DNA of 64,000 nucleotides, from positions 4,423,501-4,487,500 of the forward strand of contig NC_089438.1 of NCBI RefSeq assembly GCF_026210795.1. The letters run 5' to 3'. Below, piece after piece: positions 32-57,446 of this stretch. The position numbers and the translations under genes were made by a program. The notes below the pieces were generated by a model that was not told the origin of the DNA, ran no database searches, and saw nothing but the letters and a program-made list of their open reading frames with translations. How positions within the stretch are numbered: the stretch's first letter is position 1; each line of letters opens with the position of its first letter. The stretch comes from Rhizophagus irregularis (taxonomy: Eukaryota > Glomeromycota > Glomeromycetes > Glomerales > Glomeraceae).

Positions 32-1005
32 CATTTCATAGCAATAAATCATATGATTTTCATATTCCTAATAATAGTAAGTGCAATTATATTTATTTTA
101 AGACTATTTCTATTTGTACACTATCTTACCCAGTATCACCGACACTTTTCTGCCACGTGATCATAATAAAATATTTGTCACACGGTATCACACCTTCTGC
201 GTTTCCCTTCATAAGTATTCTGGGGACAGAGAGTTAGAGGTGTGAAAAATTATTTTTCGCATCCTTATTCATCACAAGGGTAATTTCTTAATTCCGTAAT
301 GCCGATAGAATAAATAGTAAAAATGGAAAACTATAAGGCGTGATATGGTGACAAATTATAGTTACGTGACACATGTTTTGCAACCTAGTGTATATTAAGA
401 AATTATCTTATTTAAAATATGAAGTGTAGTTTATTGATTTATTTTGCTTTTTTTTAGTTGATGATTTTAATAAATTAAATAGTAAGAAAAATAGTACCTC
501 AAAAATAAGTACCATATTTAAAGGTAATTAAATATTATATGTATTTTAAAATAGTCAAATGAATGTATAACTTATATTTAAGATTATTTTTATAGCAGAA
601 AAAAGTTATCCAATATATTTAAAAGAAGCTCAAAAAATGGCAAATAAAATAATTAAAAGTATTCTTATTACAACTTTGTTAACATTAAACATGATTTTAA
701 TTTATTTAGATACTCAAAATGATTTCAAGATTGAAACAATGCAACAGCAAATAAAGCAACTTCATATTGACGATGATGGTATTATAAAACAATTATTTAA
801 ATTCTTAAAATAATAATTATTCTACAGTATTTATGATTTTTAATTTATATTTGATAGACGAAGGTGAAGTACATAACAATCCAAATCTTCATTCGAAAGA
901 ACAAGATGAATTGGAACTTCCTGAAAGTAAGAATTATTTTTAAATTTACTTCTTAAATTATTAAATTTAACATAATATTTTTTTTTCTTAATTTTAGATA
1001 TTTAA
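32..1005 (+). CDS. 3' end of tandem protein kinase paralog K0 (cut by window start)
   Basis: These are the last exons of a kinase gene whose catalytic part lies before the window. By alignment with K1-K3 the exons are 32-76, 458-523, 596-778, 858-926 and 998-1005, and all junctions keep phase 1. Exon 32-76 encodes AFHSNKSYDFHIPNN, exon 858-926 encodes a segment containing NNPNLHSKEQDELELPE, and the last exon gives NI-stop. The exon at 596-778 is unusual: it reads straight through the sequence that is an intron in K1-K3 and so adds a hydrophobic stretch (SILITTLLTLNMILIYL) that could span a membrane. If the donor at 779 is not used, the frame stops at the TAA TAA near 811. The intron 77-457 is about 300 nt longer than in the other copies because of an insertion. 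The substrate is unknown. The exon model is an inference from four-way conservation of splice sites and phase. Confidence 0.75.
89..415. mobile_element. MITE-like insertion inside a K0 intron
   Basis: The corresponding intron in K1, K2 and K3 is about 70 nt, and here it is 381 nt. The extra DNA has imperfect inverted ends: CACGTGA, ATTTGTCAC and TATCACACCTT on the left recur in inverted order on the right as AAGGCGTGATA, GTGACAAAT and ACGTGAC. No clean target duplication could be fixed, so the limits are approximate. It carries no credible gene. Confidence 0.5.
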
Positions 1006-20146: not shown

Positions 20147-23100
20147 ATGTTTAATTCAGCCATTTATTATAATGGAGAAGGAACAGAAAATAATCTAGAA
20201 AAAGCATTTCATTATTATCAAAAAGCAGCAGAAAATGGTTTTGCTGATGCAATGTTTACTTTAGCTATAGCTTATGAAATTGGAAAAGGAGCAGAAAAGA
20301 ATATAGAAAAAGCCTTCTATTGGTATCAAAAAGCAGCAGAAAATGGAATTACTGAAGCAATGTCTACTATAGCTTTATATTATAAAAAAGGAGAAGGAAC
20401 AGAAATGAATTTAGAAAAAGCCTATTATTGGTATCAAAAAGCAGCAGAAAATGGTTGCAAAGAATCAATGTTTAATTTAGCTTTATGTTATGAAAATGGA
20501 GAAGGAACAGAAATTAATTTAGAAAAAGCCTTTTATTGGAATCAAAAAGCTGCTGAAAATGGTTTTACTGATGCAATGTTTAATTTAGCTTTATGTTATA
20601 AAAACGGAAAAGAAACAGAAATAAATTTAGAAAAAGCTTTTTATTGGTATCAAAATGCAGCAGAAAATGGAATTATTGATGCAATGTTTAATTTAGCCAT
20701 ATGTTATGAAATTGGAGAAGGGACAGAAATAAATATAGAAAAAGCCTTCTATTGGTATCAAAAAGCAGCAGAAAATGGAATTACTGATGCAATGTGTAAT
20801 TTAGCCATCTGTTATGAAATTGGTGAAGGGACAGAAATGAATATAGAAAAAGCCATCTATTGGTATCAAAAAGCAGCAGAAAATGATAATGAAGTAGCAA
20901 TGTATAATTTAGCCTTATTTTATAAAAATGGAAAAGGAACAGAAAATAATCTAGAAAAAGCATTTCATTGGTATCAAAATGCAGCAGAAAATAATTTTAC
21001 TGATGCAATGTTTAATTTAGCTTTATGTTATAAAATAGGGGAAGGAGCAGAAATGAATTTAGAAAAAGCCTTTTATTGGTATCAAAAAGCAGCAGAAAAT
21101 GGTTGTGAAGAATCTATGTATAACTTAGCTTTATGTTATGAAAATGGAGAAGGAACAGAAATGAATTTAAAAAAAGCTTTTTATTGGTATCAAAATGCAG
21201 CAGAAAATGGTTTTGCTGATGCGATGTTCAATTTAGCCATATGTTATGAAGATGGAAAAGGAACAGAAATGAAATTAGAAAAAGCTTTTTATTGGTATCA
21301 AAAAGCAGCAGAAAATGGTATTACTGATGCAATGTTTAATTTAGCCAATAGTTATGAAATTGGAGAAGAAACAAAAAAGGATATAAAAAAGGCTTTTTAT
21401 TGGTATCAAAAAGCAGCAGAAAATGGGAATGAAGCAGCAATGTATAATTTAGCCTTATTTTATAAAAATGGAAAAGGAATAGAAAATAATCTAGAAAAAG
21501 CCTTTTATTGGTATCAAAAAGCAGCAGAAAATGGTTGTAAAAAATCAATAAATATTTTAGCTGGATACTATGGAAAAAAAACAGAAATAAATTTAGAAAA
21601 AGCCTATTATTGGTATCAAAAAGCAGCAGAAAATGGAATTACTGTTGCAATGCTTAATTTGGCTATATGTTATGAAATTGGAGAAGGAACAGAAAAGAAT
21701 ATAGAAAAAGCCTTCTATTGGTATCAAAAAGCTGCTGAAAATGGTGATGAAATGGCAATGTTTTGTTTAGCTTTATATTATGAAAATGGAGTAGAAACAG
21801 GAATTAATTTAGAAAAAGCTTTTTATTGGTATCAAAAAGCAGCAGAAAATGGTTTTACTGATGCAATGTTTAATTTAGCTTTATGTTATAAAAATGGAGA
21901 AGGAACAGATATGAATTTAGAAAAAGCTTTTTATTGGTATCAAAAAGCAGCAGAAAATGGAATTACTGACGCAATGAATAATTTAGCCATATGTTATGAA
22001 GATGGAAAAGGAACAGAAATGAATTTAGAAAAAGCTTTTTATTGGAATCAAAAAGCAGCTGAAAATGGTAATGAAGTAGCAATGTATAATTTGGCTTTAT
22101 TTTATGAAAATGGAAAAGGAACAGAAAATAATCTAGAAAAAGCCTTTTATTGGTATCAAAAAGCAGCAGAAAATGGAATTACTAATGCAATGCTTAATTT
22201 AGCCATATACTATGAAAATGGAAAAGGAATAAAGAAGAATATAGAAAAAGCCTTATATTGGTATCAAAAAGCTGCTGAAAATGGTGATGAGATGGCAATG
22301 TTTAATTTAGCTCTATGTTATGAAAATGGAGATGGAAAAGAAATAAATTTAAAAAAAGCCTTTTATTGGTATCAAAAAGCAGCAGAAAATGGTCATGAAA
22401 ATGCAATATTTTGTTTAGCTATATGCCATAAAAATGGAGAAGGAACAGAAAAGAATATTGAAAAAGCCTTGTATTGGTTTCAAAAAGCAGCTGAATATGG
22501 TAATGAAGTGGCAATGTTTAATTTAGCTTTATCTTATAAAAATGGAGAAGGAACAGAAATAAATCTAGAAAAAGCCTTTTATTGGTATCAAAATGCAGCA
22601 GAAAATAGTTTTACTGATGCAATGTTTAATTTAGCTTTATGTTATGAGAATGGGGAAGGTACAGAAATAAATTCAGAAAAAGCCTTTTATTGGAATCAAA
22701 AAGCAGCAGAAAATGGTTTTACTGATGCAATGTTTAATTTAGCTTTGTGTTATGAAAATGGAAAAGGAATAGAAAAAAATAAGGAAAAAGCCTTCTATTG
22801 GTATCAAAAAGCAGCTGAAAATGATAATGAAAGAGCATTGCTTTATTTAGCTTTAAACGATGTAGAAACAGAAAAGAATTTAAAAACAACATTTTATTGG
22901 AACCAAGAATCAGCAGAAAATGGTCTTGTTGAAGAAATGTTTAAGTTAGCATTATGTTATAAAAATGGAGAAGGAACAGTAATAAATTTAGAAAAAGCCT
23001 TTTATTGGTATCAAAAAGCAGCAGAGAATGGTTATAAAGAAGCAATGAAGACTTTAGCTATATGTTATGAAAATGGAGAAGGGACAGAAAAGAATGAGAA

Positions 23101-26100
23101 AAAAGCCTTTTATTGGTATCAAAAAGCAGCAGAAAATGGAATTACTGATGTAATGTTTAATTTAGCCATATGTTATGAAATTGGAGAAGGAACAGAAATG
23201 AATTTTAACAAAGCCTTTTATTGGTATCAAAAAGCTGCCGAAAATGGTAATGAAAAGGCAATGTTTTGTTTAGCTTTATATTATAAAAATGGAAAAGAAA
23301 CAGAAATAAATTTGGAAAAAGCTTTTTATTGGTATCAAAAAGCAGCAGAAAATGGTTATGAAAATGCAATAATTTGTTTAGCCACATGCTATAAAAATGG
23401 AGATGGAACAGAAAAGAATATAGAAAAAGCCTTCTATTGGTATCAAAAAGCTGCTGAAAATGGTAATAATGTAGCAATGTATAATTTAGCCTTATTTTAT
23501 AAAAATGAAAAAGGAACAGAAAATAATCTAGAAAAAGCCTTTGATTGGTATCAAAAAGCAGCAGAAAATGGAATTACTGATGCAATGTTTGATTTAGCTT
23601 TATGTTATAAATATGAAGAAGGAACAGAAATGAATTTAGAAAAAGCCTTCTATTGGTATCAAAAAGCAGCAGAAAATGGAATTATTAATGCAATGCTTAA
23701 TTTAGCTATATGTTATGAATTTGGAGAAGGAACTGAAAAGAATATAGAAAAAGCCTTTTATTGGTATCAAAAGGCTGCTGAAAATGGTAATAAAGTGGCA
23801 ATGTTTGGTTTAGCTTTATGTTATGAAAATGGGATAAAAACAGAAAATAATCTAGAAAAAGCCTTTTATTGGTATCAAAAAGCAGCTGAAAATGGTTTTA
23901 CTGATGCAATGTTTAATTTAGCTTTATGTTATAAAAATGGAGAAGGAATAGAAATGAATTTAGAAAATGCCATCTATTGGTATCAAAAAGCAGCAGAAAA
24001 TGGTTGTAAAAAAGCAATGAATAATTTAGCTGCATATTATGGAAAAGGAACAGAAAATAAGGAAAAAGCTTTTTATTGGTATCAAAAAGCTGCTGAAAAT
24101 GATGATGAAATGGCAATGTTTAATTTAGCCTATAGTTATGAAAATGGAGAAGGAACAGAAAAGAATGAGGAAAAAGCCTTTTATTGGTATCAAAAAGCAG
24201 CAGAAAATGGTAATACTCTTGCAATAATCAATTTAGCCAGTAAATATTATTATGGAGAAAGAATAGAAAAGAATATGAAAAAATGGGTTTATTTGAATCA
24301 AAAGGCAGCAGAAAATGGGTTTAAAAGAGCAATGCATAATTTGGCCTATAGTTATAAAAATGGAGAAGGAACAGAAAAAGATTTACAAAAAGCCTTTTAT
24401 TGGTATCAAAAAGCAGCAGAAAATGGAAATGCTAATGCAATGTTTGATTTAGCCAAATGCTATAAAAATGGAGAAGGGATAGAAATGAATTTAGAAAAAG
24501 CCTTTTATTGGTATCAAAATGCAGCAGAAAATGGTTTTACTGATGCAATGTTTAACTTAGCCTATAGTTATGAAAATGGAAAAGGAACAGAAAATAATTT
24601 AGAAAAAGCCTTCTATTGGTATCAAAAAGCAGCAGAAAATGATCATAAACATGCAATGTTTAATTTATCTAGATATTATATAAATGGAAAAGAAACAGAA
24701 AAGAATTTAGAAAAAGCCTTTTATTGGTATCAAAAGGCAGTAGAAGGTATTTCTAAAAATGAAGCTGAATACTGTTATAAATGCAAACAACCATATATTG
24801 ATTACCAGTGGTGCAAACAATGTAATACCAAACGATTTAAACAAAATTTTTCAAAGTGGACTAGTAATAATGAAATTATTGATAAATTTATTCAAGATGC
24901 ACAAATAAATGCTAAAAATAGTTATGAAATCTTAGAGTGGATACCTTATGATAGATTGTCAGATATTAATTATCATGATAAAGGAGGATTTGGTGAAATT
25001 CATAGAGCTATCTGGTCAGATGGACCTATTTATAGTTGGAATTCTGATGAACAGCAATGGAATAGACAAGCAGAATATAAGGTCGCTCTTAAAATACTTA
25101 AGGGTTCATCAAGTTCAAATAATAAATTTTTGGATGAGGTATAGTATTTATAATTATAATAAACTGAATTTTATTTTCTTTGCAAAAATTTATTAATTTT
25201 TTTGTTATTTAAATAGTGGAAATATCATTATAATTGTCAGAAAGGATCATTTTCAAAATTTATTCAATTTTTTGGGTTTACACAAGATCCAAATAATTTA
25301 AATTATATAATAGTAATGAGCTATGCAAAAAAAGGAACTTTGAAAGATTGTTTATCTGACATAATTAAATTTAAGTGGCAAGACAAGTTAGAATTATTGA
25401 AAAAAATTATTTTGGGACTTAAAATAATTCATGAATCAAAATTAACTCATGGTGATTTTCACGATCGTAATATTTTAGTGTCAGATGATTACGATGAGGT
25501 ATTTATTATTGATTTCGGATTATGTAAACCTATAAGTGATTTACAAGATTCTGACAATGATGATGATAAAATTTGTGGAGTTTTGCCTTTTATGGCGCCT
25601 GAAATATTAAGAAGAAATCCTTATACTTCAGCAAGTGATATTTATAGTTTTTCAATGATAATGTGGGAATTTACATCGGGTATCCCTCCATTTAATCATG
25701 AATGTGATCTTAACCTTGCTTTAAGTATTTGTGAAGGGAAACGTCCTGAAATTAAAAAAAGTACTCCAAATTGTTATGTAGATTTAATGAAAAAATGTTG
25801 GGATTCAAATCCTTCTGATAGGCCAACTATAGTAATGATTGAAAATATTTTATCTAAATGGATCAAATGTATTAATGAACATTATGAAATAAACAGGGAT
25901 GAAAATAATACTACCATGTTAACAAAGTATAGTGATGATCAATTGAAAAATAATATGTTGGAATTTGTAGAAGCAAACAAAGTTAATGTACAAGAACAAG
26001 CAAACAGTTCTAATATACAATCTCATCCACAATCTCATCCACAAACATATTATACAAGTCGTGAATTCTCTGAAATTTTAGTTCAAGAAGGGTCAGATGA

Positions 26101-37510: not shown

Positions 37511-39744
37511 ATGTCTTCTAATCCAAAAGTTAGTGTTGCACTTAATAGAGCATATGCACTAATAGATTACAAAGTTTATAATGATACACACAAACGATAT
37601 GAATTTCAAAAACAAACACTTCTTGCTGATGAATCACTTACAGAAAATGAAAAATCCGAAGCAATAACAATAATAACTAGAACTTATGATCATAACAAAC
37701 TTATTTTTAATTCAGGAACAAAAAGAATTTGTGAAAATTGTAACCAAGAATGTTTAGCTACAACATTTTGTGAACTTTGTGTTCGAAATTATTTAAAAGC
37801 AAATTTTTCAAATTGGACATCTGGAAATGATATGATCAATAATTTAATACAAGAATGTCAAATGAAAACACTTGCACCAAATGGAATAGTAGAATGGATT
37901 CCATATAATAATTTACAAAATATTGAATACCTAACAAAAGGAGGATTTTCAGAAATTTATACAGCAGATTGGATTAATGGAAATTTTATTGAATGGGATT
38001 CTAAAAAACAACAATTAAAAAGATTTGGAAAACATATAGTAGTACTTAAAAAATTTGAAAAATTTGAAAATGCAAGTCAAAATTGGTTTGAAGAGGTTTG
38101 AATTTAAAATATTTTAAATTTCATTAATAATATCTTAAATTTTAATTATGTTTTTTACTTATAGGCAAGATCACATTTAAATCTAAGCAATAAATGGAAT
38201 GTTATTGTCCAATGTTTTGGATTAACACAAGATCCATCAAATGGGAATTATATGCTCATAATGCAAAATATGGACATAGATTTAAGAAATCATTTACAAC
38301 AAAATCATAATCAACTTACATGGAAAGAAAGAATTCAAATTGTCACTAGTATAATTGATGCACTATCAAAAATTCATGAAGAAAATGCAATTCATAGAGA
38401 TTTACATTCTGGAAATATATTATTTAAAGGTGGTAGATTTGATATAAGTGATCTCGGATTTTGTGGACCTGCAGATAAACCATTAATAAGTATATATGGA
38501 AATCTTCCTTATATAGCACCTGAGGTTATTATTGGAAGAGAACAGACTTATAAATCTGATGTTTATAGTATTGCAATGCTTATGTGGGAAATTTCATCTG
38601 GACAACCACCATTTAATAATTATGAACATGATTATGATCTTGCAATGAATATTGTTAATGGTATAAGACCAAAAATTGTGCCTGGAACTCCTTTAGAATA
38701 TAAAAATTTGATGAAACAATGTTGGGATGCTGATCCATCAAAAAGACCTGATATTATTACACTTCGGGATAAAATAAGAGAAATTAATTTATTATATCAA
38801 ACTAAATCAAGTGAATTATCTCAGCTTGAAGAAAATAATAATTTTGAGGTAGAAAACCATACCAGCAGTAGCAAACCATTTACAAGTAAACTTCATCAAT
38901 TTGACAATCTTCCTGAACCAAGAAATGCAACAGAAGGTATTATATTAATTTTTGTTAATTTTTAAAAAGGTGTATTAATGTATTTAATTAATTAATGTTT
39001 TTTTTTTAATTTAAATAATAACAGAAGAACAAGAAGGTATAAATTAAGCAATTTCTTATATAATTTTAATTTATAAATATTGATGATAATATATAATTTT
39101 TTTATAGCATTTCATAGTAACAAATCATATAATTTTCATATTCCTGATAATAGTAAGTGCAATTAAATTTAAATATTATATAACGAGGCGTTATTTATTG
39201 ATTTACTTTGCGTTTTTTTTAGTTAATGATTTTAATAAATCAAGTAGTAAGAAAAATAGTACTTCAAAAATATATAGCATATTTAAAGGTAATTGAATTA
39301 CATTTTATTTTGACATAATCAAATGAATGAATAACTTATATTTAAGGTTTTTTAGTTAGCAGCAAAAAGTTATCCAATATATTTAAAAGAAGCTCAAAAA
39401 ATGGCAAGTAAAATAATTTAAAATGTGTTGATTTTATTTTAATATTAAACATGATTTATTATCTAGATGATTATAAGATTGAATCAATGCGAAAGCGAAT
39501 AAAAAACCTTCATATTAATGATAATGGTACGATAAAACAATTATTTAAATTCGTAAAATAATTATTCTACAGTATTTTATGATTTTTAATTTATATTTGA
39601 TAGACGAAGAAGAAGTACATAACAATCCTAACCTTCATTCAGAAGAACAAGATGAATTGGAACTTCCTGATAGTAAGAATTATTTTTAAAATGTTTAAAA
39701 TTTACCATAGATTAAATATTTTTTTTTTTCTTTTAGATATTTAG
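37511..39744 (+). CDS. Protein kinase K1 of the tandem array, about 554 aa
   Basis: Nine exons: 37511-38095, 38165-38936, 39025-39036, 39108-39152, 39223-39288, 39360-39407, 39467-39526, 39604-39672 and 39737-39744. The frame stays open at every joint. The N-terminus carries a Cys pair motif (CENCNQEC ... CELC). The kinase domain follows: GGFSEIYTA loop, VVLKKF lysine, HRDLHSGNIL catalytic loop, ISDLGFC (DLG instead of DFG), YIAPEV, and MLMWEISSGQPPF typical of the TKL-like expansions of these fungi. The tail contains PEPRNATEEEQEAFHSN, NKSSSKKNSTSK, NNPNLHSEEQDELELPD and ends NI. All catalytic residues are present, so it is probably active; the substrate is unknown. If the sixth intron is retained the protein ends MASKII at 39421. 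It converges on HK1. Confidence 0.85.
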
Positions 39745-50268: not shown

Positions 50269-52529
50269 ATGTCATTAGGTCAAAATAAATTAATTAATAA
50301 TTCACTTAATAGGTCAATTGCATTAATGGATTACAATGTTCATAATGATATACACAAACAACATGAATTTAGAAAACAAACAATTCTTGCTGATGAATCA
50401 CTTACAGAAAATGAAAAATCTGAAGCAATAAGAATAATAACTAAAACTTATGATAAAAATAAACTTACTTTTAATGAAGGAACAAAAAGAATTTGTGAAA
50501 ATTGTAACCAAGAATGTTTAGCTACAACATACTGCGAACTTTGTGTTCGAAATTATTTAAAAGCAAATTTTTCAAATTGGACATCTGGAAATGATGTTAT
50601 CGATAATTTAATACAAGAATGCCAAATAAAAACACTTGCACCACGTCTAATACCAGAATGGATTCCATATAATAATTTTAAAAATATTAAATACCTAGCA
50701 AAAGGAGGATTTTCAGAAATTTATACAACAATATGGGTTAATGGAAATTTTATTGAATGGGATTCTAAAAAACAACAATTAAAAAGATTTGGAAATTCTT
50801 ATGTAGTACTTAAAAAATTAGAAAATATTGAAAATGCAAGTCAAAGTTGGTTTGAAGAGGTTTGAATTTTAAAATATTTTAAATTTCATTAATAATATCT
50901 TAAATTTTAATTATATTTTTTCGTTTATAGGCAAAATCACATTTAAATATAAGCAATAAATGGAATAATATTGTCCAATGTTATGGTTTAACACAAGATC
51001 CATCAAATGGAAATTATATGCTTGTAATGAATAAACTGGATACAGATTTAAGAAAATATTTACAACAAAATCATAATCAACTTACATGGAAAGAAAGAAT
51101 TCAAATTATTACTGATATAACTTTTGCACTTAAAAGAATTCATGAAGAAAATGCAATTCATAGAGATTTGCATTCTGGAAATATATTAGTTAGTGCTAAA
51201 TTTTTTATTAGTGATCTTGGATTTTGTGGACCTGCAGATAAACCATTGAAAAGTATATATGGAAATCTTCCTTATATAGCACCTGAGGTTATTATTGGAA
51301 AAGAACAGACTTTTAAATCTGATATTTATAGTATTTCAATGCTTATGTGGGAAATTTCATCTGGACAACCACCATTTAATAACCATGAACATGATTACGA
51401 TCTAGCAATGAATATTGTTAATGGTATAAGACCAAAAATTGTACCAGGAACTCCTTTAGAATATAAAAATTTAATGAAACAATGTTGGGATGCTGATCCA
51501 TTAAAAAGGCCTAATATTTTTACACTTCGGAAAAAAACGAGAGAAATTAATTTATTTTATCAAACTAAATCAAGTGAATTATCTCAGCTAAAAGAAAATA
51601 ATATAGACAACTATACCAGCAGTAGTAGCAATCTATTTACAAGTAAACTTCATCAATTTGACAATCTTCCTGAACCAAGAAATGCAACAGAAGGTATTAT
51701 ATTAATCATTCTTAATGATTTAAAAGATTGTTAATATATTAAATTAATGATGTATTATTTTTTTTAATTTAAATGATAATAGAAGAACAAGAAGGTATAA
51801 ATTAAGTAATTTCTTATATGATTTAATTTATAAGTATTGAAGTAATGATGATAATATATTTTTTTTATAGCATTTCATAGTAATAAATCATATAATTTTC
51901 AGATTCCTGATAATAGTAAGTGCAATTAAATTTAAATATTATACTGTATAACGAGGCATTATTTATTGATTTACCTTGCTTTTTTTAGTTGATGATTTTA
52001 ATAAATCAAGTAGTAAGAAGAATACTACTAGTACTTCAAAAATAAATAGCATGTTTAAAGGTAATGGAATTAGTATATTTTATTTTGAAGTAATCAAATG
52101 AATGAATAACTTATGTTAAGGTTTTTTAGCTAGCAGCAAAAAATCATCCAATATATTTAAAAGAAGCTCAAAAAATGGCAAGTAAAATAATTTAAAATGT
52201 GTTAATTTTATTATAATATTAAACATGATTTATTATTTAGATGTTTATAAGATTGAATCAATGCGGAAGCGAATTAAGAAACTTCATATTAATGATAATG
52301 GTATGGTAAACAATTATTTAAATTCTTAAAATAATTATTCTACAATATTTTATGATTTTTAATTTATATTTGATAGACGAAGAAGAAGTTCATAACAATC
52401 CTAACCTTCATTCAGAAGAACAAGATGAATTGGAACTTCCTGATAGTAAGAATTCTTTTTAAAATGTTTAAAATTTACCATAGATTATTAAATTTAACGT
52501 AATATTTTTTTTTCCTTTTAGATATTTAG
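50269..52529 (+). CDS. Protein kinase K2 of the tandem array, about 555 aa
   Basis: Exons 50269-50859, 50931-51693, 51783-51794, 51871-51915, 51989-52060, 52134-52181, 52241-52300, 52377-52445 and 52522-52529; all joints keep frame. Motifs: Cys pairs CENCNQEC ... CELC, GGFSEIYTT loop, VVLKKL lysine, HRDLHSGNILV, ISDLGFC, YIAPEV and QCWDADPLKRPN. Exon 5 has two extra codons relative to K1 and K3 (KKNTTSTSK). The terminal exons encode RKRIKKLHINDN and EVHNNPNLHSEEQDELELPD. The single-base deletion seen after the exon at 52241-52300 falls in the intron and is harmless under this model. It is very similar to K3, and the similarity extends about 1 kb upstream, indicating a recent duplication. Convergent HK2 lies downstream. 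Confidence 0.85.
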
Positions 52530-55217: not shown

Positions 55218-57446
55218 ATGTCATTGGGTAAAAATAAATTAATTAATAATGCAATTAATAGAGCATATGCATTAGTAGATTACAATGTTCATAATGATAT
55301 ACACAAACAACATGAATTTCAAAAACAAAAACTTCTTGCTGATGAATCACTTACAGAAAATGAAAAATCTGAAGCAATAATAATAATAACTAAAACTTAT
55401 GATAAAGACAAACTTACTTTTAATGAAGGAACGAAAAGAATTTGTGAAAATTGTAAACAAGATTGTTTAGCTACAACATACTGCGAACTTTGTGTTCGAA
55501 ATTATTTAAAAGCTAATTTTTTAAATTGGACATCTGGAAATGATATGATCGATAATTTAATACAAGAATGTCAAATGAAAATATTTGCACCACGTCTAAT
55601 ACCAGAATGGATTCCATATAATAATTTTAAAAATATTAAATACCTAGCAAAAGGAGGATTTTCAGAAATTTATACAGCAATATGGATTAACGGAAATTTT
55701 ATTGAATGGGATTCTAAAGAACAACAATTAAAAAGATTTGGAGAACAAATGATAGTACTTAAAAGATTAGATAATGTTGAAAATGCAAGTCAAAGTTGGT
55801 TTGAAGAGGTTTGAATTTTAAAATATTTTAAATTTCATTAATAATATCTTAAATTTTAATTATATTTTTTTACTTATAGGCAAGATCACATTTAAATATA
55901 AGCAATAAATGGAATGTTATTGTCCAATGTTTTGGATTAACACAAGATCCATCAAATGGAAATTATATGCTTGTAATGAATAGACTGGATACAGATTTAA
56001 GAAAATATTTACAACATCATAATCAGCTTACATGGAAAGAAAGAATTCAAATTATTACTGATATAATTAATGCACTTGGAAGGATTCATGAAGAAAATGC
56101 AATTCATAGGGATTTGCATTCTGGAAATATATTATTTGGAGAATATTTTTTTATTAGTGATCTTGGATTTTGTGGGCCTGCAGATAAACCATTAAAAAGT
56201 ATATATGGAAATCTTCCTTATATAGCACCTGAGGTTATTATTGGAAAAGAACAGACTTATAAATCTGATATTTATAGTATTGCAATGCTTATGTGGGAAA
56301 TATCGTCTGGACAACTACCATTTAATAATTATGAACATGATTATGATCTTGCAATGAATATTGTTAATGGTATAAGACCAAAAATTGTACCAGGAACTCC
56401 TTTAGAATATAAAAATTTAATGAAACAATGTTGGGATGCTGATCCATCAAAAAGACCTGATATTATTACACTTCGGAATAAAATGAGAGAAATTAATTTA
56501 TTTTATCAAACTAAATCAAGTGAATTATCTCAGAGTGAAGAAAATAATAATTTTGAGGTAGAAAACCATACCGGCAGTAGCAAACTATTTACAAGTAAAC
56601 TTTATCAATTTGACAATCTTCCTGAACCAAGAAATGCAACAGAAGGTATTATATTAATCTTTATTAATTGTTTAAAAGACTATTAATTATATTAATTATT
56701 TTTTTAATTTAAATAATAATAGAAGAACAAGAAGGTGTAAATTAAGTAATTCTTATACAATTTTAATTCATAAAAATTAATGATAATATTTATTTTTTTT
56801 TTAGAATTTCATAGTAACAAATCATATAATTTTCATATTCCTAATAATAGTAAGTGCAATTAAATTTATATATTATATAACGAGGCGTTATTTATTGATT
56901 TACTTTGCTTTTTTTAGTTGATGATTTTAATAAATCAAGTAGTAAGAAAAATAGCACTTCAAAAATAAATAGCATATTTAAAGGTAATTGAATTGCATTT
57001 TATTTTGACATAATCAAATGAATAAATAACTTATATTTAAGGTTTTTTAGTAAGCAGCAAAAAGTTATCCAATATATTTAAAAGAAGCTCAAAAAATGGC
57101 AAGTAAAATAATTTAAAATGTGTTGATTTTATTTTAATATTAAACATGATTTATTATTTAGATGATTATAAGATTGAATCAATGCGAAAGCGAATAAAAA
57201 AACTTCATATTAATGATAATGGTATAGTAAAACAATTATTTAAATTCTTAAAATGATTATTCTACAGTATTTTATGATTTTTAATTTATATTTATAGACG
57301 AAGAAGAAGTACATAACAATCCTAACCTTCATTCAGAAGAACAAGATGAATTGGAACTTCCTGATAGTAAGAATTATTTTTAAAATGTTTAAAATTTACC
57401 ATAGATTAAATTTAACGTAATATTTTTTTTTCTTTTAGATATTTAG
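55218..57446 (+). CDS. Protein kinase K3 of the tandem array, about 554 aa
   Basis: Exons 55218-55808, 55880-56645, 56723-56734, 56805-56849, 56918-56983, 57055-57102, 57162-57221, 57298-57366 and 57439-57446, with uninterrupted frame. The N-terminal Cys motif is CENCKQDC ... CELC. The kinase has the GGFSEIYTA loop, IVLKRL lysine, HRDLHSGNILF, ISDLGFC and YIAPEV. In exon 4 the first codon gives Glu where K0-K2 have Ala (EFHSNKSYNFHIPNN). The tail ends with KESMRK-like RKRIKKLHINDN, NNPNLHSEEQDELELPD and NI. The full set of catalytic residues suggests activity; DLG replaces DFG as in its sisters. Intron 6 retention would end the protein at 57116 after MASKII. HK3 is downstream on the opposite strand. 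Confidence 0.85.

What the first reader, a model, noticed from the sequence alone, without database searches (positions are those of the whole stretch)
596..816. Intron of K1-K3 is an open, membrane-anchor-like coding segment in K0
In K1, K2 and K3 the segment after KEAQKMA begins with a GT donor (GTAAAATAATT), contains in-frame TAAs and ends in a TAG acceptor; splicing keeps frame into RKRIKKLHIN. In K0 the donor GT is AT, the homologous segment has no stop and encodes SILITTLLTLNMILIYL, a plausible transmembrane helix, before rejoining the shared coding sequence in the same frame. So an anchor-coding segment became an intron in three paralogs, or an intron was turned into coding sequence in one. 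Either would switch the kinase between membrane-bound and soluble.
Basis: partly seen in the sequence, partly recalled or inferred. Interest (0 to 1): 0.75.

Follow-up and report, generated by a model that had tools for sequence, protein, structure and literature searches.

The report
Kinase intron read as membrane helix
In one member of a large fungal kinase family, two damaged splice signals appear to cancel each other, so that a stretch normally cut out of the message would be read as protein and could anchor the enzyme in a membrane; no expression data were available to confirm it.

Summary
The bare observation holds: K0 has an uninterrupted frame where K1-K3 have an intron. The reading of it needs correcting. 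K1-K3 most likely do not use the proposed GTAAAA donor: exon 6 is read in another frame (VSSKKLSNIFKRSSKN) and the donor lies 4 nt upstream as G(C/T)AAGT (GC in 25, GT in 7, GCAAAT in 2 of 34 aligned paralogs). The intron is therefore ancestral, K0 derived. K0 differs twice: the intron-5 acceptor TAG of the other 33 copies is gone, leaving TATAG 4 nt later, and donor position +5 is A (GCAAAT, shared only with broken L020). Net -4+70 = +66 nt: read-through restores the frame and gives a 583-aa kinase with a hydrophobic 22-aa insert and a 48-aa tail. Hydrophobicity is ordinary for this intron and chance openness is about 2% per copy, so selection is not shown. Retention in mRNA is inferred only. 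Nearest precedent: yeast PTC7. My probability that K0 makes the anchored protein is about 0.5.

The parts
32..76 (+). K0 exon 4 (exons 1-3 lie upstream of the window, within L001 532-2078)
77..457 (+). K0 intron 4, 381 nt, enlarged by a repeat-like insert of about 300 nt
458..523 (+). K0 exon 5
524..595 (+). K0 intron 5; acceptor TATAG ending at 595 (50th percentile of family acceptors); the TAG 4 nt earlier, present in the other 33 aligned copies, is TTT here
596..778 (+). K0 fused exon 6 + intron 6 + exon 7, one open frame
640..709 (+). former intron 6 of K0 (70 nt), donor relic GCAAAT at 640-645, acceptor TTTAG intact; predicted to be retained, giving the hydrophobic insert
659..709 (+). 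rival cryptic intron: donor AAA|GTATTC, 51 nt, frame-preserving, would remove the hydrophobic segment; score 1.98, below all 48 distinct family donors
779..857 (+).
858..926 (+). K0 exon 8, conserved acidic tail
998..1005 (+). K0 exon 9 with the stop codon
39356..39403 (+). K1 exon 6, frame VSSKKLSNIFKRSSKN
39404..39466 (+). K1 intron 6, predicted GC-AG, 63 nt
52178..52240 (+). K2 intron 6, predicted GC-AG, 63 nt
57099..57161 (+). K3 intron 6, predicted GC-AG, 63 nt

Best explanation
K0 is a kinase gene with open exons, of a large family, in which intron 6 has become part of the coding sequence. Shown by sequence: the ancestral gene reads exon 6 as ...SKKLSNIFKRSSKN, has a G(T/C)AAGT donor and continues in frame through exons 7-9 to the shared C-terminus (...ELPDNI in K1). 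In K0 the usual intron-5 acceptor is gone and the best remaining one is 4 nt downstream, which moves exon 6 into another frame (KSYPIYLKEAQKMA). The intron-6 donor has decayed from GCAAGT to GCAAAT. Reading through the 70-nt intron adds 70 and loses 4 nt, net +66, so exons 7-9 come back into their conserved frame. Inferred: the mRNA retains the segment in most transcripts, because no GT or GC in the scanned stretch 590-715 reaches the weakest family donor. Inferred: the 583-aa protein carries a single helix (about residues 516-535) preceded by lysines and followed by a 48-aa acidic tail, and so would sit as a C-terminally anchored membrane kinase with its catalytic domain in the cytosol.
For: Acceptor TAG in 33 of 34 aligned copies, absent only in K0; AAGT donor core in 32 of 34, absent in K0 and L020. 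K0 acceptor TATAG at the 50th percentile; GCAAAT raw score 3.84 and GTATTC 1.98 against a family minimum of 4.93. Read-through model is frame-complete, 583 aa. Kinase domain nearly full-length, PF07714 E 2.8e-38, profile 4-255 of 258. Copy L021 is open to the end only if the same +4 acceptor is used, a 4-nt insertion in its exon 6 compensating the shift: independent support for the shifted acceptor. Tail exons 7-8 of K0 show 6 silent and 7 replacing differences from L002 and 8 and 7 from L003, per site dN/dS 0.19 and 0.13 over 42 codons; 0.31-0.36 against four further copies, as expected if still translated. KD19 1.91 in the insert against 0.77 for the best stretch among residues before 440.
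Against: No RNA or protein evidence. The +5 change still leaves a GC donor that some splicing could use (as if GT it would lie at the 40th percentile); that would truncate the tail (526 aa). Hydrophobicity is unremarkable for this intron: 15-residue maxima, stops skipped, of 2.5-3.2 in L004, L005, L010, L013, L018 and L028, which keep the normal donor, against 2.17 in K0. Openness by chance is about 2% in my simulation, and 9-13% of fungal introns are 3n and stop-free in PMC7072748. The tail dN/dS rests on 13-15 differences, most of which may predate the splice lesions. Kinase exons show weak constraint (dN/dS 0.52-0.79 against six copies), so relaxed selection or pseudogenisation cannot be excluded.
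Confidence: 0.5

Rival explanations
1. K0 still splices intron 6 with the decayed GC donor after using the TATAG acceptor. The result is a frameshift: a kinase ending after KMILKMISRLKQCNSK (526 aa) without the acidic tail and without an anchor.
For: GCAAAT keeps GC and positions +3, +4 and +6; scored as if GT it lies at the 40th percentile of family donors. Isoform computed.
Against: GC donors depend strongly on the rest of the consensus (recalled), and +5 G is lost; raw score 3.84 is below all 48 distinct family donors. The tail beyond would be untranslated, yet it is open and has a low dN/dS.
Confidence: 0.2
2. K0 uses a cryptic donor at 659 (AAA|GTATTC), removing 51 nt in frame. The protein has 566 aa, with a few extra residues (NKIIK) and no membrane segment.
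For: Frame-complete. GTATTT and GTATTA are the common donors of intron 2 in this family.
Against: Score 1.98, below all 48 distinct donors. 51 nt is shorter than every real family intron measured (218 measured; one 1-nt value is an alignment artefact, the next shortest is 60 nt).
Confidence: 0.08
3. K0 keeps the ancestral exon-6 frame by using the AAG at 582 as acceptor and the GCAAAT donor, giving a soluble 564-aa protein with a changed start of exon 6 (DYFYSRKKLSN...).
For: Frame-complete.
Against: AAG582 scores 0.67 (2nd percentile) against 8.84 for TATAG595, and the donor is also weak.
Confidence: 0.05
4. K0 is a decaying or unexpressed copy; the open read-through is coincidence.
For: Other copies of the family have stops in the tail (L020, L028). 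Kinase exons show dN/dS 0.52-0.79. Chance of an open frame is about 2% per copy with 34 copies aligned.
Against: All K0 exons are open and the kinase domain is nearly full-length. The open frame coincides with both splice lesions in the same copy.
Confidence: 0.17

Closest known systems
PTC7 of Saccharomycetaceae (PMC3597508, passages read; Juneau 2009 is cited there, not read)
   Same: Signalling enzyme of a fungus; a stop-free intron of 3n nt whose retention yields a nuclear-envelope form while splicing yields a mitochondrial form; after duplication in Tetrapisispora blattae one copy has no recognisable intron and the other must be spliced.
   Different: There it is a phosphatase, a choice within one gene conserved across many species, with localisation reported experimentally. 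Here the intron is not 3n (70 nt); the frame works only together with a 4-nt acceptor shift, the change is in one of 34 aligned paralogs, and nothing is shown experimentally.
RiCTR3A/RiCTR3B of Rhizophagus irregularis (PMC6531763, passages incl. part of the abstract read)
   Same: An intron-retaining transcript in (probably) the same or a related species, with altered predicted membrane topology.
   Different: There retention is optional and creates a premature stop; here read-through is open and the donor is damaged.
GC-AG introns (PMC7072748, passages and tables read: 1.0% of fungal introns)
   Same: K1-K3 intron 6 has GC in a full AAGT context, and GT in the same place in 7 of 34 paralogs.
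   Different: GC is the majority state at this site in this family (27 of 34 including the two GCAAAT copies).

Membership tests
Expanded fungal kinase family (PF07714-type) | Protein kinase domain | tested here: met
   for K0, for K1 exon 2
Expanded fungal kinase family (PF07714-type) | Shared nine-exon structure with the same junctions | tested here: met
   (34 copies, with exceptions in a few such as L017 and L027); K0 departs at introns 5 and 6
GC-AG intron (intron 6 of K1-K3) | GC at the donor in AAGT context, AG acceptor | tested here: met
GC-AG intron (intron 6 of K1-K3) | Frame kept when spliced there | tested here: met
   25 of 32 modelled copies full-length, K1-K3 among them, against 1 of 32 (K0) with the position 4 nt downstream
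GC-AG intron (intron 6 of K1-K3) | Splicing seen in RNA | not testable with these tools
   no RNA data held
PTC7-like membrane form by intron read-through | Stop-free read-through that keeps the downstream frame | tested here: met
   given the TATAG acceptor
PTC7-like membrane form by intron read-through | Retained intron is itself a multiple of three | tested here: not met
   70 nt by the family's donor position
PTC7-like membrane form by intron read-through | Retained segment forms a membrane helix | tested here: inconclusive
   Kyte-Doolittle 1.91 over 19 residues; no dedicated predictor or experiment
PTC7-like membrane form by intron read-through | Both spliced and retained forms made from one gene | not testable with these tools
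   no RNA data; donor score suggests mainly retention
PTC7-like membrane form by intron read-through | Conserved across species | not testable with these tools
   no relatives of this genome are held

The most novel reading that the evidence does not exclude
Two splice-site losses that would each break the protein compensate each other (-4 and +70 nt). By turning an old GC-AG intron that translates as a hydrophobic peptide into coding sequence, they created a membrane-anchored kinase within a gene-conversion-prone gene family.
Probability: 0.4. Interest if true: 0.6.

Novelty: new variant of a known kind. Interest (0 to 1): 0.42.

Why it matters
If retained in mRNA, it is a paralog-polarised case of an intron becoming a protein segment, with possible intermediate states visible among sister genes: GT donor, GC donor, shifted acceptor with a compensating insertion (L021), shifted acceptor with read-through (K0). 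AT-rich introns often translate as hydrophobic peptides, so such families may gain membrane anchors easily. It also warns that a gene finder restricted to GT donors would mis-frame exon 6 in most aligned copies of this family.

Tried and rejected
Rejected: an AT-AC type intron in K0; the acceptor is AG, not AC. The codon-position test on exon 6 was inconclusive: changes at positions 1/2/3 of frame B were 11/28/30, permutation p 0.12, and by this count alone frame C has the lowest second position (30/11/28). The frame was therefore decided by stops and ORF continuity. The tree of kinase exons 1-2 (L017 and L027 left out of 34) groups K0 with L021, while from the end of exon 6 K0 is closest to L002; support values were not read out, so I do not rely on the tree. 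A mosaic test found an L002-like tract from the end of exon 6 to the start of exon 8 (30 of 36 diagnostic sites inside, 26 of 103 outside; 0 of 400 shuffles as strong). The pair L021/L002 was chosen after looking at similarities, so that figure is optimistic, and other copies match K0 better in parts of the gene. Paper searches that returned no paper; one search listed 6, not read further. Errors of mine: wrong frame; K0 exon 7 was cut one base short, so the protein end and isoform table there are superseded.

Full report
What is there. The window lies at G000:C10:4423501-4487500 of a 146.7-Mb genome in 32 contigs. The size, A+T richness and large kinase and Sel1 families suggest an arbuscular mycorrhizal fungus close to Rhizophagus irregularis. 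That is recall and inference; that its tyrosine kinase-like genes are expanded is stated in PMC4219462 (passages read). A DNA search with window 590-910 gave 42 match rows at 40 places, a lower bound because only the best candidates are scored. Three of the places are K1-K3; the other 37, K0 among them, were fetched, and 16 more loci followed from the searches. 34 copies were aligned over the whole gene; 7 partial copies and 15 more distant or fragmentary loci (L039-L053) were left out of that alignment and of the counts made on it.

Gene structure. Most junctions recur across the family. K0 begins upstream of the window; its exons are open and the kinase domain is nearly full-length.

The intron-6 donor. 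Three results speak against this. First, over the last 14 codons of exon 6 the frame that this donor needs has stops in 7 of 31 copies (6 if L015, with a shorter exon, is set aside); the other frame (SKKLSNIFKRSSKN) has none in 31. Second, the proposed GT scores 2.05, below each of 48 distinct donors from the other introns; G(T/C)AAGT, 4 nt upstream, would score at the 94th percentile as GT, and 6.47 raw with GC. Third, with the upstream donor 25 of 32 modelled copies are full-length, two more (L017, L026) are open but end without a stop, and five have a stop (K0, L020, L021, L028, L032). L015 and L027 could not be modelled. Of 34 copies 25 have GCAAGT, 7 GTAAGT and 2 GCAAAT (K0 and L020). So this is an old intron that exists in GT and GC versions, GC being the commoner in the aligned set. 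GC-AG makes up 1.0% of fungal introns in PMC7072748 (table seen). The codon-position test on exon 6 did not settle the frame.

What changed in K0. The intron-5 acceptor TAG of the 33 other aligned copies is TTT in K0; the next AG is TATAG at 595, 4 nt later, and scores at the family median. The second AG at this place is missing in 12 of 34 copies, which supports the first one as the ancestral acceptor. K0 also has A at donor position +5. Either change alone breaks the tail in the models: TATAG with the old donor position gives 526 aa, and retention in the ancestral frame (modelled with the AAG acceptor at 582) gives 518 aa. Together, with retention, they give 583 aa in frame to the conserved C-terminus. 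Three other spliced forms are also frame-complete: the cryptic donor at 659 (566 aa), AAG582 with GCAAAT (564 aa) and skipping of exon 6 (545 aa).

A sister case. L021 is 96-98% identical to K0 in exons 4-6 and intron 5 and has a 4-nt insertion in exon 6. It is open to the end only if the same +4 acceptor is used (in one search I supplied its last exon from the family pattern). This suggests that the acceptor shift was already usable in the common ancestor, and that L021 and K0 restored the frame in different ways. From the end of exon 6 to the start of exon 8, K0 instead resembles L002. Gene conversion from an L002-like copy may have brought in the GC-type intron before its donor decayed. This order of events is inference.

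Is the anchor real? The insert NKIIKSILITTLLTLNMILIYL has a Kyte-Doolittle maximum of 1.91 over 19 residues; the best stretch among residues before 440 has 0.77. But the same intron read in the same frame, stops skipped, is more hydrophobic in several normal paralogs, and 22% of random open frames of this composition pass 1.6. The hydrophobicity is thus a by-product of a T-rich intron, not evidence of selection. The 48 residues after the helix and their acidity would fit a C-terminally anchored protein with the kinase in the cytosol; this is inference from general rules (recalled).

Selection. In exons 7-8, 42 codons, K0 differs from L002 by 6 silent and 7 replacing changes and from L003 by 8 and 7 (dN/dS 0.19 and 0.13); against L021, K1, K3 and L008 dN/dS is 0.31-0.36. 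In kinase exons it is 0.52-0.79 against the same six copies. The tail figures favour continued translation but rest on few changes and cannot be dated against the splice lesions. No population or species data were available.

Known or new. Retention of a stop-free intron giving a membrane form of a signalling enzyme is known from PTC7, including its sorting into paralogs in Tetrapisispora blattae (PMC3597508, passages read). An intron-retaining transcript is known in R. irregularis for RiCTR3 (PMC6531763, passages read). The listings showed no title reporting this kinase case; they cover open-licence papers only, and I did not open most of those papers. The difference here is that two separate splice-site losses compensate each other, and that possible intermediate states survive in sister genes.

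Noticed in passing
window 108-412: Intron 4 of K0 is 381 nt because of a repeat-like insert; the search scored 40 matches across the genome (K0 itself included), most of them covering only its last part, query 199 to about 305.
   Followed up: partly
L016, L019, L022, L025, L029, L030, L037, L051: Partial copies that hold only the 3' part of the gene from about exon 7 on. In six (L016, L019, L022, L030, L037, L051) the break lies just before ATTTTTAG|ATATTCAA, i.e. at the intron-6 acceptor. The opposite strand next to it gives a Sel1-like peptide in L016, L019, L030, L037 and L051 by eye; Pfam confirms Sel1 for L037 (E 1.8e-7) but not for the L016 peptide, and finds nothing in the L029 one (3 of 8 tested).
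   Followed up: partly
L021 (G000:C10:4381703-4385415): A 4-nt insertion in exon 6 restores the frame if the +4 acceptor is used: AEISYPILIFKRRSKN followed by the normal tail.
   Followed up: yes
L020 (G000:C10:4727701-4731407): Second copy with GCAAAT; its exon 6 is one base shorter and has a stop in the model, so its tail looks broken.
   Followed up: partly
   Followed up: yes
window 779-857: Intron 7 is 95-99% identical between K0 and L002, L003 and K1, more than the neighbouring exons (80-92%); against L004 and L021 it is 87-89%. Unexplained, perhaps recent homogenisation.
   Followed up: no
window 20147-25144: A 1665-aa open frame with 41 Sel1 stretches in Pfam.
   Followed up: no
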